From Qipengyuania aquimaris (GTDB lineage Bacteria > Pseudomonadota > Alphaproteobacteria > Sphingomonadales > Sphingomonadaceae), in contig NZ_WTYI01000001.1 of assembly GCF_009827445.1 (NCBI RefSeq), forward strand, positions 1,936,381 to 2,000,380: a stretch of DNA of 64,000 bases, written 5' to 3'. The notes under the pieces are model-generated. The model had not been told where the DNA came from. It ran no database searches and saw nothing but the letters and a program-made list of their open reading frames with translations. Below, piece by piece: positions 61,913 to 63,135 of the stretch. Position 1 is the first letter of the stretch. Each line of letters starts with the position of its first letter. The position numbers and the translations under genes are program-made.

Positions 61913-62314
61913 ATGTACGTAAGGTTCACCGTGCCGGTCGAGCACGGCGGGACGGTCACGCGCATGAACATTGCGCCGGGGCCATTCCGGATTGCCAGCG
62001 GCCTCCTGTGGAAGGGGGACCGCGACAGCGACCCTGTCCTGATTGCCCTGAGAAGGGAACTGGACTGGTTCAACGACAAGCTCCCGGTGCCCCGGCGTTT
62101 TCACGTCCGGGCGCGCCGGGTCTGGTGGAGCGACGGCGTCTGCTGGTTCCGCGACGATGCCCGCGAGATGCTTGCCCATATGCATGCGCTCGTCAGTCTC
62201 GTGGAAGAAGTCGGCGTTCCCGTCACACGCAGCTGGACCCGCGATCCGGGCCAGCTGCTTTATCGCGACCGCTGGCAGGTGGTCGCAATGCCCGAGAAGA
62301 GGAGGTTGCAATGA
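61913..62314 (+). CDS. Hypothetical protein
   Basis: A 133-residue protein that I do not recognise as a named family. It has no signal or membrane segment, is rich in Arg and Trp, and contains RRELDWFNDKLPVPRRFHVR, RVWWSDGVCWFRDDAREML and YRDRWQVVAMPEKRRLQ. The even charge distribution suggests a small folded cytoplasmic protein. Its stop overlaps the SEC-C gene start (ATGA), so the two were once, or still are, co-translated. Confidence 0.7.
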   Translation: MYVRFTVPVEHGGTVTRMNIAPGPFRIASGLLWKGDRDSDPVLIALRRELDWFNDKLPVPRRFHVRARRVWWSDGVCWFRDDAREMLAHMHALVSLVEEVGVPVTRSWTRDPGQLLYRDRWQVVAMPEKRRLQ

Positions 62315-62552
62315 CCGAATACTATGAAGACACGCCCAACTTTCGAGCGGACTTCCAAACGCCGCAAGGGCTTCCTCAGCGAAACGCGGGTCAAGCGTGG
62401 GCATCGGACCATAAAGGGCGGTGCGGTCGAGCTGCTTGAAAAGCTCGGCCGCAACGATCCCTGCCCGTGTGGTTCGGGAAAGAGATTTCAAGCGGTGCTG
62501 CCTGAAGAGCAAACGCTTCGACGGGTCGCAGCGGCGTGACTACTGGCGGTGA
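62311..62552 (+). pseudogene. SEC-C zinc-motif protein split over three frames by two +1 shifts
   Basis: ATG 62311 has AGGAGG five bases upstream and overlaps the preceding stop. It encodes [15 protein letters not shown], then needs base C62356 skipped to enter [15 protein letters not shown] and run to [14 protein letters not shown]; skipping C62489 then gives [20 protein letters not shown] and TGA at 62552. The 79-residue composite restores the whole SEC-C motif (CxCGSGKRF then CC), which binds zinc in SecA-type tails. Read without shifts it yields fragments lacking half the zinc ligands. Both sites read TTY-C-AAR-CG. Pseudogene, sequencing error or programmed shifting cannot be separated here. 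Confidence 0.65.
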
Positions 62553-62595: not shown

Positions 62596-63135
62596 GTGGG
62601 CAAGATCCTTCCCTTCAGGCGCAGGCCGGACAGGCGCGTGCCCCGCTTTCACCGCAAGCCGGTGAGGCGCAGGTCTCGCAAGGGCGGCTGGCGAGCAGCC
62701 GTGACTGTCATTCTCACGCTGGCGCTGGTGGCTGCCTGGGTCCTGTTCGAGGACCGCATCGGGCCGCGTCCCGAGATGACCGAGGTGGCCTCGAGCTTCG
62801 GGCTGTGCGGCGAAGGCTGGGGTGCCTGCGTGGTCGACGGGGACACGGTGCGGATCGGCGAGCGGCGCATCCGGCTCACCGGCTTCGACGCGCCGGAGAT
62901 GGACGGGGCGTGCGAGGCCGAGCGGGTCAAGGCGCGCGATGCCCGCACGGCCCTCCACCAATGGCTATCGCAAGGCCGCTTCAGCTGGACCGGCGGCCAG
63001 GACCCACCCCGCGACCGCTACGGCCGCGAACTGCGCGCCGCCTACCGAGGCGGAGAGAAGCTGGCGGACCACATGATCGACGCTGGCCTCGCCGAGGGAG
63101 ATGGCTGGATGGGGAACGTCAACTGGTGCCGATGA
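62596..63135 (+). CDS. Membrane-anchored thermonuclease-family (SNase-like) protein
   Basis: A 179-residue protein: a basic N-terminus (RRRPDRRVPRFHRKPVRRRS), one transmembrane helix (about 34-52), then a SNase/TNase domain with ACVVDGDTVRIGERRIRLTG, FDAPEMDGACEAE and DRYGRELRA, including the conserved Asp, Arg and Glu positions of staphylococcal nuclease. Short C-terminus ends WMGNVNWC. Ca2+-dependent nuclease activity is plausible. Start GTG 62596 is a best guess; a weak AGGG lies close upstream. Confidence 0.82.
   Translation: MGKILPFRRRPDRRVPRFHRKPVRRRSRKGGWRAAVTVILTLALVAAWVLFEDRIGPRPEMTEVASSFGLCGEGWGACVVDGDTVRIGERRIRLTGFDAPEMDGACEAERVKARDARTALHQWLSQGRFSWTGGQDPPRDRYGRELRAAYRGGEKLADHMIDAGLAEGDGWMGNVNWCR

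What the first reader, a model, noticed from the sequence alone, without database searches (positions are those of the whole stretch)
62311..62552. SEC-C gene needing two +1 shifts at twin TTY-C-AAR-CG sites
Seen: a perfect AGGAGG and an ATGA overlap fix the start at 62311. Two single-base skips, both of a C (62356 and 62489), join three frames into a 79-residue protein with an intact SEC-C zinc motif. The sites are ACTTC-C-AAACG and GATTT-C-AAGCG, both falling after Phe and before Lys-Arg. Known: +1 slippage at Phe codons followed by C is documented in bacteria, and SEC-C motifs need the CxC and CC parts. Inference: either two independent one-base insertions that by chance hit the same motif, or a programmed double shift controlling a zinc-binding peptide. 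Two matching sites in one small gene are unusual either way.
Basis: partly seen in the sequence, partly recalled or inferred. Interest (0 to 1): 0.72.

Follow-up and report, generated by a model that had tools for sequence, protein, structure and literature searches.

The report
Bacterial gene with repeated frame shifts
A tiny bacterial gene for a metal-binding protein can apparently only be read if the ribosome skips one base two or three separate times at fixed places, and the same skips recur in relatives from several bacterial phyla, so this looks like a deliberate reading trick rather than damage.

Summary
Relatives put shift 1 at TTT-C-GAG (TTT 62341-62343, extra C 62344), not at 62356. 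Shift 2 (TTT-C-AAG, C 62489) is right.

It is not an error or a young pseudogene. Of 97 distinct gene sequences (Alpha-, Beta-, Gammaproteobacteria, Verrucomicrobia, Planctomycetes, Acidobacteria and others), 91 need +1 at site 1; 89 of 96 at site 2. A third +1 site, SGRF|DG, is used in 36 of 95 and is in frame in the window. Slippage is at Phe TTT followed by C or T in 90/91, 87/89 and 35/36; by automated count 27 genes need three shifts, 68 two, 2 one. None of 33 other SEC-C motifs shifts at the site-2 position.

Best mechanism: tRNA-Phe slips from UUU to UUC/UUU while a slow codon (CGA, CAA, UGA, UAA) waits, helped at site 2 by an SD-like purine stretch. Regulatory purpose is inferred only. 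In 10 of 45 genomes checked the gene lies within 6.5 kb of the RtcB RNA-repair ligase. My paper searches found no description of it.

The parts
62300..62305 (+). Shine-Dalgarno AGGAGG, 5 nt before the start codon
   Evidence: SD-linked start at the matching place in L003-L007
62311..62343 (+). segment 1 (0 frame): [11 protein letters not shown], short variable leader ending at the Phe TTT of site 1
   Evidence: the site-1 Phe is codon 9-26, in 77 of 90 genes codon 10-13
62341..62347 (+). +1 frameshift site 1, TTT-C-GAG (0-frame A-site codon CGA)
   Evidence: a fitting TTT-Y in 90 of the 91 genes that need this shift
62345..62488 (+). segment 2 (+1 frame): [10 protein letters not shown]...[17 protein letters not shown], 48 codons, holds the CxC half of the metal site
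   Evidence: third-position variation in this frame across 83 genes; alignment of 24
62480..62485 (+). purine stretch AAGAGA directly 5' of site 2, Shine-Dalgarno-like candidate stimulator
   Evidence: AGA/AGG in 36 of 63 Arg codons before site 2 against 93 of 982 elsewhere in the genes; anti-SD pairing energy
62486..62492 (+). +1 frameshift site 2, TTT-C-AAG (0-frame A-site codon CAA)
   Evidence: +1 needed in 89 of 96 genes, at TTT-Y in 87 of these
62490..62552 (+). segment 3 (third frame): [20 protein letters not shown] and stop; holds the CC half of the metal site
   Evidence: PF02810, residues 47-64 of the joined protein
62517..62522 (+). place of the family's third +1 site; here TTC-GAC, in frame, no shift needed
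   Evidence: +1 at this place in 36 of 95 genes
61913..62314 (+). upstream gene, 133 aa, no Pfam match, overlaps the start as ATGA
   Evidence: homologue near the gene in 10 of 99 loci, flanks of about 1.5 kb examined

Best explanation
This is a small SEC-C metal-binding protein gene, 79 residues in the window, expressed through successive programmed +1 ribosomal frameshifts at Phe UUU-pyrimidine sites. The confidence given is for this part. Shown by sequence: an SD-led start, a leader of about 10 codons, shift 1 at UUU-C/U, about 48 codons, shift 2 at UUU-C/U between the two cysteine pairs, and in many relatives shift 3. Inferred from known decoding: tRNA-Phe (anticodon GAA) leaves the wobble-paired UUU in the P site and re-pairs one base on, on UUC or UUU, while a slow 0-frame codon (CGA, UGA, CAA, CAG, UAA) waits in the A site; the SD-like purine stretch helps at site 2. 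Ribosomes that do not shift make truncated peptides without a complete metal site. My most likely reading of purpose, at about 0.35, is that needing two or three slips ties production of the protein to slowed decoding or termination (damaged or scarce tRNA, release-factor shortage). The protein would act in translation or RNA quality control, which fits its position beside the RtcB repair gene in some lineages.
For: Same two shifts in 5 of 5 first relatives from two families. Site 1 +1 in 91 of 97, site 2 +1 in 89 of 96, site 3 +1 in 36 of 95; TTT-Y at 90/91, 87/89 and 35/36 of these; 27 genes need three shifts, 68 two, 2 one. 0 of 33 other SEC-C motifs (35 tried, 33 scored) shift at the site-2 place in a like alignment. 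Codon third positions vary most in the predicted frame next to each site (0.28/0.31/0.59 after site 1, 0.18/0.12/0.57 before site 2, 0.41/0.35/0.56 after site 2). AGA/AGG directly before site 2 in 36 of 63 Arg codons against 93 of 982 elsewhere (Fisher p 6e-19, not corrected for relatedness); pairing of the 14 bases before site 2 with the anti-SD mean -5.4 against -2.8 kcal/mol for windows in the middle of the same genes. UUU_Ynn is described as especially prone to +1 shifting in bacteria (PMC5009743, passages). RtcB within 6.5 kb of the gene in 10 of 45 genomes examined, with five or six tRNA genes in 4 of these ten stretches.
Against: No expression data: no ribosome profiling, peptide or reporter. 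Two or three shifts in series would give little protein unless each is very efficient. The purpose is not shown: the window's own genome has no RtcB, 35 of 45 genomes do not have it near, and A-site codons are partly forced by the +1-frame amino acid. No conserved RNA structure at the sites, and no SD-like stretch at site 1 (mean -0.9 kcal/mol). The 27 bases before site 1 show no codon-phase signal. Segment 3 is only loosely constrained: over 12 closer pairs, 46 synonymous and 52 amino-acid-changing codon differences, against 187 and 56 in segment 2. Exceptions: L104 and L114 need +1 at site 2 without TTT-Y, L121 at site 1 without TTT-Y; L041, L043, L044, L072, L114 and L140 do not fit the site-1 rule. 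Many of the 80 scanned loci are metagenome assemblies, so phylum labels can be wrong in single cases.
Confidence: 0.9

Rival explanations
1. Shift-prone but unregulated: the +1 sites slip efficiently and persist by neutral drift, gained and lost by single-T indels (TTC to TTTC), as argued for Euplotes, without regulatory meaning.
For: Site states vary: 7 of 96 are in frame at site 2, as TTC-AA in 6 and TTT-AAG in 1, and site 3 is in frame in 58 of 95. The Euplotes neutral case is in print (PMC10235951, title and start of abstract in search listings).
Against: Site 1 is kept in 91 of 97 across phyla; AGA/AGG enrichment before site 2 suggests selected stimulation.
Confidence: 0.27
2. Autoregulation: the SEC-C protein, or something it controls, acts on the ribosome and feeds back on its own shifting, as RF2 does in prfB.
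For: prfB sets the precedent of an autoregulatory +1 shift (PMC12421855, passages); SecA-like metal-binding domains occur in SecA, YecA and YchJ, and work not yet peer reviewed makes YecA a chaperone (PMC8076867, passages).
Against: The protein matches only the SEC-C motif, no release factor; A-site codons differ (UGA, CGA, CAA, UAA), so no single factor reads them all.
Confidence: 0.2
3. The shift happens in transcription (RNA polymerase slippage) rather than in translation.
For: A few relatives have runs of six or seven T at site 1, for example L074, L083, L123 and L140.
Against: In the window and most relatives the run is TTTC or TTTT, too short for known slippage (general knowledge, not from a call).
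Confidence: 0.05
4. Sequencing error or decaying pseudogene.
For: The broken frame itself; single copies such as L041, L129 and L150 do look decayed.
Against: The same shifts at the same codons in 97 distinct gene sequences, with a frame-specific substitution pattern.
Confidence: 0.02
5. Two or three separate small proteins from overlapping frames, with no joined product.
For: Segments overlap, and the window has an in-frame ATG at 62324.
Against: Where site 2 is used, CxC and CC are never in one frame. An in-frame start for segment 2 with an SD match of 5 or more was seen in 3 of 97 genes (L041, L087, L090). Starts for segment 3 were not tested.
Confidence: 0.04

Closest known systems
prfB (release factor 2) programmed +1 frameshift
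   Same: +1 slip of a P-site tRNA on a run of U with a slow A-site codon (UGA in some relatives here), near the start of the gene; an SD-like stretch upstream (here at site 2).
   Different: Codon is UUU read by tRNA-Phe, not CUU; two or three sites, not one; A-site codon often a sense codon; product is not a release factor.
+1 frameshifting at UUU-Y in bacteria (YopN-TyeA, rhizobial integrative element)
   Same: Same slippery tetranucleotide UUU_Y, or UUU shift codon, named in the 2016 frameshifting review (PMC5009743, passages).
   Different: The passages describe one site per gene; here serial sites recur in one small gene family across phyla.
SecA-like metal-binding domain (SEC-C) proteins: SecA tail, YecA, YchJ
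   Same: PF02810 motif CPC...CC.
   Different: A free-standing protein of about 80 aa whose basic part (KRRKGFPSET.VKRG) matches no other Pfam family and no NCBIfam model above cut-off; split by frameshifts, unlike 33 other SEC-C motifs tested.
Multi-shift genes of Euplotes and mitochondria
   Same: More than one frameshift in one gene (PMC5009743 passage).
   Different: Here in bacteria, in one particular gene family; that decoding in Euplotes and those mitochondria is altered more generally is recalled or from an abstract start.

Membership tests
SEC-C motif protein (PF02810) | CxC...CC metal-ligand motif above Pfam's gathering score | tested here: met
   Joined protein P0001 scores 37.6 bits, cut-off 20.4; the four cysteines are invariant in the 24 joined proteins aligned. 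Met only if shift 2 occurs.
Programmed +1 frameshift genes | Shift needed at the same codon in distant relatives | tested here: met
   91 of 97 (site 1) and 89 of 96 (site 2).
Programmed +1 frameshift genes | Recognised slippery sequence at the shift | tested here: met
   TTT-Y in 90/91, 87/89 and 35/36.
Programmed +1 frameshift genes | Measured shift efficiency or trans-frame peptide | not testable with these tools
   No expression data held.
prfB-type autoregulated RF2 | CTTTGA with AGGGGG three bases upstream, release-factor product | tested here: not met
   Slippery codon is TTT, site-1 A-site codon is CGA in the window, protein matches only SEC-C.
Component of Rtc RNA-repair operons | Genomic adjacency to rtcB | tested here: inconclusive
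   Within 6.5 kb in 10 of 45 genomes examined (45 of the 80 loci), but the own genome lacks RtcB.

The most novel reading that the evidence does not exclude
A widespread bacterial gene family whose product is assembled only by two or three serial +1 slips of tRNA-Phe at UUU-Y. It would act as a built-in translational-stress sensor: each slip reports slow A-site decoding, so the metal-binding protein, which works with the RtcB/tRNA repair response, appears when the tRNA pool or termination is compromised. It would be the first bacterial gene, as far as my searches go, known to use serial programmed frameshifts.
Probability: 0.35. Interest if true: 0.93.

Novelty: new variant of a known kind. 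Interest (0 to 1): 0.86.

Why it matters
Single programmed frameshifts are known in bacteria; the multi-shift genes in the review passages I read were in ciliates, mitochondria and retroviruses. A small, conserved bacterial gene with two or three slippery Phe sites gives a direct way to ask how efficient serial +1 slips can be, what they respond to, and what this SEC-C protein does. Its broken frame also makes it easy for annotation to miss: the two annotated plasmid records that hold a copy list no feature there, though that gene table is incomplete and the copy opened looks decayed.

Tried and rejected
Conserved RNA structure as stimulator: alifold gave none, mean z of single-sequence folds -0.3 to -0.8. 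SD-like element at site 1: none; pairing is weaker than in control windows. Phage origin: no hit in 50,697 phage records at E 1e-5; of 24 viral-contig hits only L151 and L152 match beyond the SEC-C motif (5 of the 24 were aligned). Rtc membership of the window gene: not borne out, its genome has no RtcB. Literature: ten counted paper searches (one search was an input error); 'frameshift' with 'SEC-C motif' gave 0 papers. No structure prediction was obtained. Reads cannot be inspected here. Tree-based counts of gain and loss were not run.

Full report
What is there. The gene starts at ATG 62311 behind AGGAGG (62300-62305) and overlaps the upstream ORF as ATGA. Read in three frames it gives [11 protein letters not shown] (62311-62343), then after skipping C62344 [48 protein letters not shown] (62345-62488), then after skipping C62489 [20 protein letters not shown] and a stop ending at 62552, in all 79 residues. 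The joined protein matches only the SEC-C motif in Pfam (PF02810, 37.6 bits, cut-off 20.4); nine NCBIfam models match its SEC-C part, none above its cut-off; the closest solved chains are pieces of YchJ and SecA.

The first site. In the window alone the place is open, since the 0 frame runs to a stop at 62437. Relatives move it to TTT-C-GAG at 62341-62347: L003 and L006 have GACCTCGAAACG where the window has GACTTCCAAACG, none of L003-L007 has a 0-frame Phe codon there, and all five have TTTCGAG or, in L007 of another family, TTTTGAG, where the 0 frame reads a TGA stop. An in-frame ATG at 62324 without SD exists in the window, but L004, L005 and L007 lack any such start.

The family. A search of 99 genomes, own included, found the gene in the own genome and five others at E 1.5e-18 or better. 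In 396 genomes of the order it is in 18, own included, at E 1e-19 or better; in 289 of the class in 3, own included; in 299 of the phylum in 6, own included, one of them a weak match. It is thus patchy. Two Nitrospirota plasmid records also hold a copy, and the one that I opened looks decayed.

Counts. Of 106 loci given to a frameshift-aware alignment, one did not align (L008), one is another SEC-C protein (L002, SecA by recall), five repeat loci already held and two are identical genes; 97 distinct gene sequences remain. The start with the best SD is one base out of frame with the middle segment in 91 of 97; the middle segment is one base out with the CC segment in 89 of 96; the CC segment is one base out with the tail in 36 of 95 (58 in frame, 1 other). 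The shift coincides with TTT followed by C or T in 90 of 91, 87 of 89 and 35 of 36. Site-1 forms: TTTCGA 57, TTTTGA 29, others 4. Site 2: TTTCAA 73, TTTTAA 6, TTTCAG 5, TTTCCG 3, no TTT-Y 2. Site 3: TTTCGA 22, TTTTGA 13, no TTT-Y 1. By the automated count 27 genes need three shifts, 68 two and 2 one. Where site 2 is in frame (7 of 96) the codons are TTC-AA in six and TTT-AAG in one. Of seven further loci (L143-L149) six aligned, and all six need +1 at site 2; L148 also shows an extra +1 elsewhere.

Controls. A like alignment with the tail of the reference was tried on 35 other SEC-C loci; 33 scored, 4 of these showed some shift, none at the site-2 position. Pairwise differences by codon position in 83 genes show the third-position excess in the predicted frame after site 1, before site 2 and after site 2. 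Against this: the 27 bases before site 1 show no phase signal, and in 12 closer pairs segment 3 has 46 synonymous and 52 changing codon differences, against 187 and 56 in segment 2, so segment 3 is constrained only loosely. In the 0 frame before site 1, 46 of 90 genes have Pro two codons before the Phe and 68 of 90 have Ser or Cys one codon before it. In 44 ORFs of the window TTT is 103 of 654 Phe codons and AGA 29 of 1410 Arg codons, so AGA-TTT is unusual there.

Stimulators. Arg codons directly before site 2 are AGA or AGG in 36 of 63, against 93 of 982 at other places of the genes (p 6e-19, relatedness not corrected). Pairing of the 14 bases before site 2 with the anti-SD is stronger than in windows from the middle of the same genes (-5.4 against -2.8 kcal/mol), partly because of the encoded residues. 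Site 1 has no such stretch, and no common RNA fold was found.

Mechanism. Shown: frames, sites, conservation. Inferred: tRNA-Phe slips from UUU to the overlapping UUC or UUU while a slow codon waits. [quoted passage not shown] prfB shows the general arrangement of slippery codon, slow stop and SD-like stretch (PMC12421855, passages). Site 2 lies between the two cysteine pairs, so where it is used no product of one frame holds the full metal site.

Surroundings. RtcB was then sought by Pfam model in 45 genomes that hold the gene (45 of the 80 loci) and found in 30. By coordinates it lies within 6.5 kb of the gene in 10 of the 45. Four of these ten stretches carry five or six tRNA genes (their titles are Rubrivivax, Roseateles twice and a Burkholderiales bacterium); one of them also has RtcA, an HNH protein and a weak exoribonuclease match, and two share an SPFH protein. 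RtcR-controlled repair operons respond to tRNA fragments in Salmonella (PMC7790460, passages). The window's genome has no RtcB, so the link is a hint, not a rule.

Literature. None of my searches returned a title or abstract start on a frameshifted SEC-C gene or on a bacterial cellular gene with serial programmed frameshifts. Papers opened were read only as passages found by terms. The 2013 GeneTack survey (PMC3711429, passages) has cluster tables in supplements that I could not read. Novelty is stated only for what was searched.

Verdict.

Noticed in passing
window 61913-62314 (+): 133-aa protein with no Pfam match that overlaps the start of the SEC-C gene; a homologue lies near the gene in 10 of 99 loci.
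   Followed up: partly
window 62596-63135 (+): Staphylococcal-nuclease-like protein (PF00565, E 3.7e-4, 21.3 bits against a cut-off of 21) directly downstream.
   Followed up: no
L104 and L114 (Lysobacter), site 2: Both need a +1 shift near site 2 but read TTCAAGG and TTTAAGG, with no TTT-Y; either another shift site or decay.
   Followed up: no
L140, L074, L083, L087, L107, L123, L130, site 1: Runs of six or seven T at site 1; L140 would need +2 or -1, so polymerase slippage is possible there.
   Followed up: no
L175, L179, L180, L181: rtcB neighbourhoods with five or six tRNA genes (Arg, Glu, Pro, Asp, His, Trp, Leu, Tyr and others) around the SEC-C gene; possibly a tRNA reserve tied to RNA repair.
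   Followed up: partly
L183:698-2143 and L175:459-1784: Homologous long ORFs upstream of the SEC-C gene in two rtcB neighbourhoods; the 400 residues of one that were scanned have no Pfam match.
   Followed up: no
L151, L152 (viral contigs): Two relatives on contigs labelled viral (24 kb and 533 kb); provirus or mis-sorted host DNA.
   Followed up: no
L150 (CP114554.1, Manganitrophus plasmid): Decayed-looking copy between a tyrosine recombinase gene and a SIR2/ATPase gene pair, with no listed feature.
   Followed up: no
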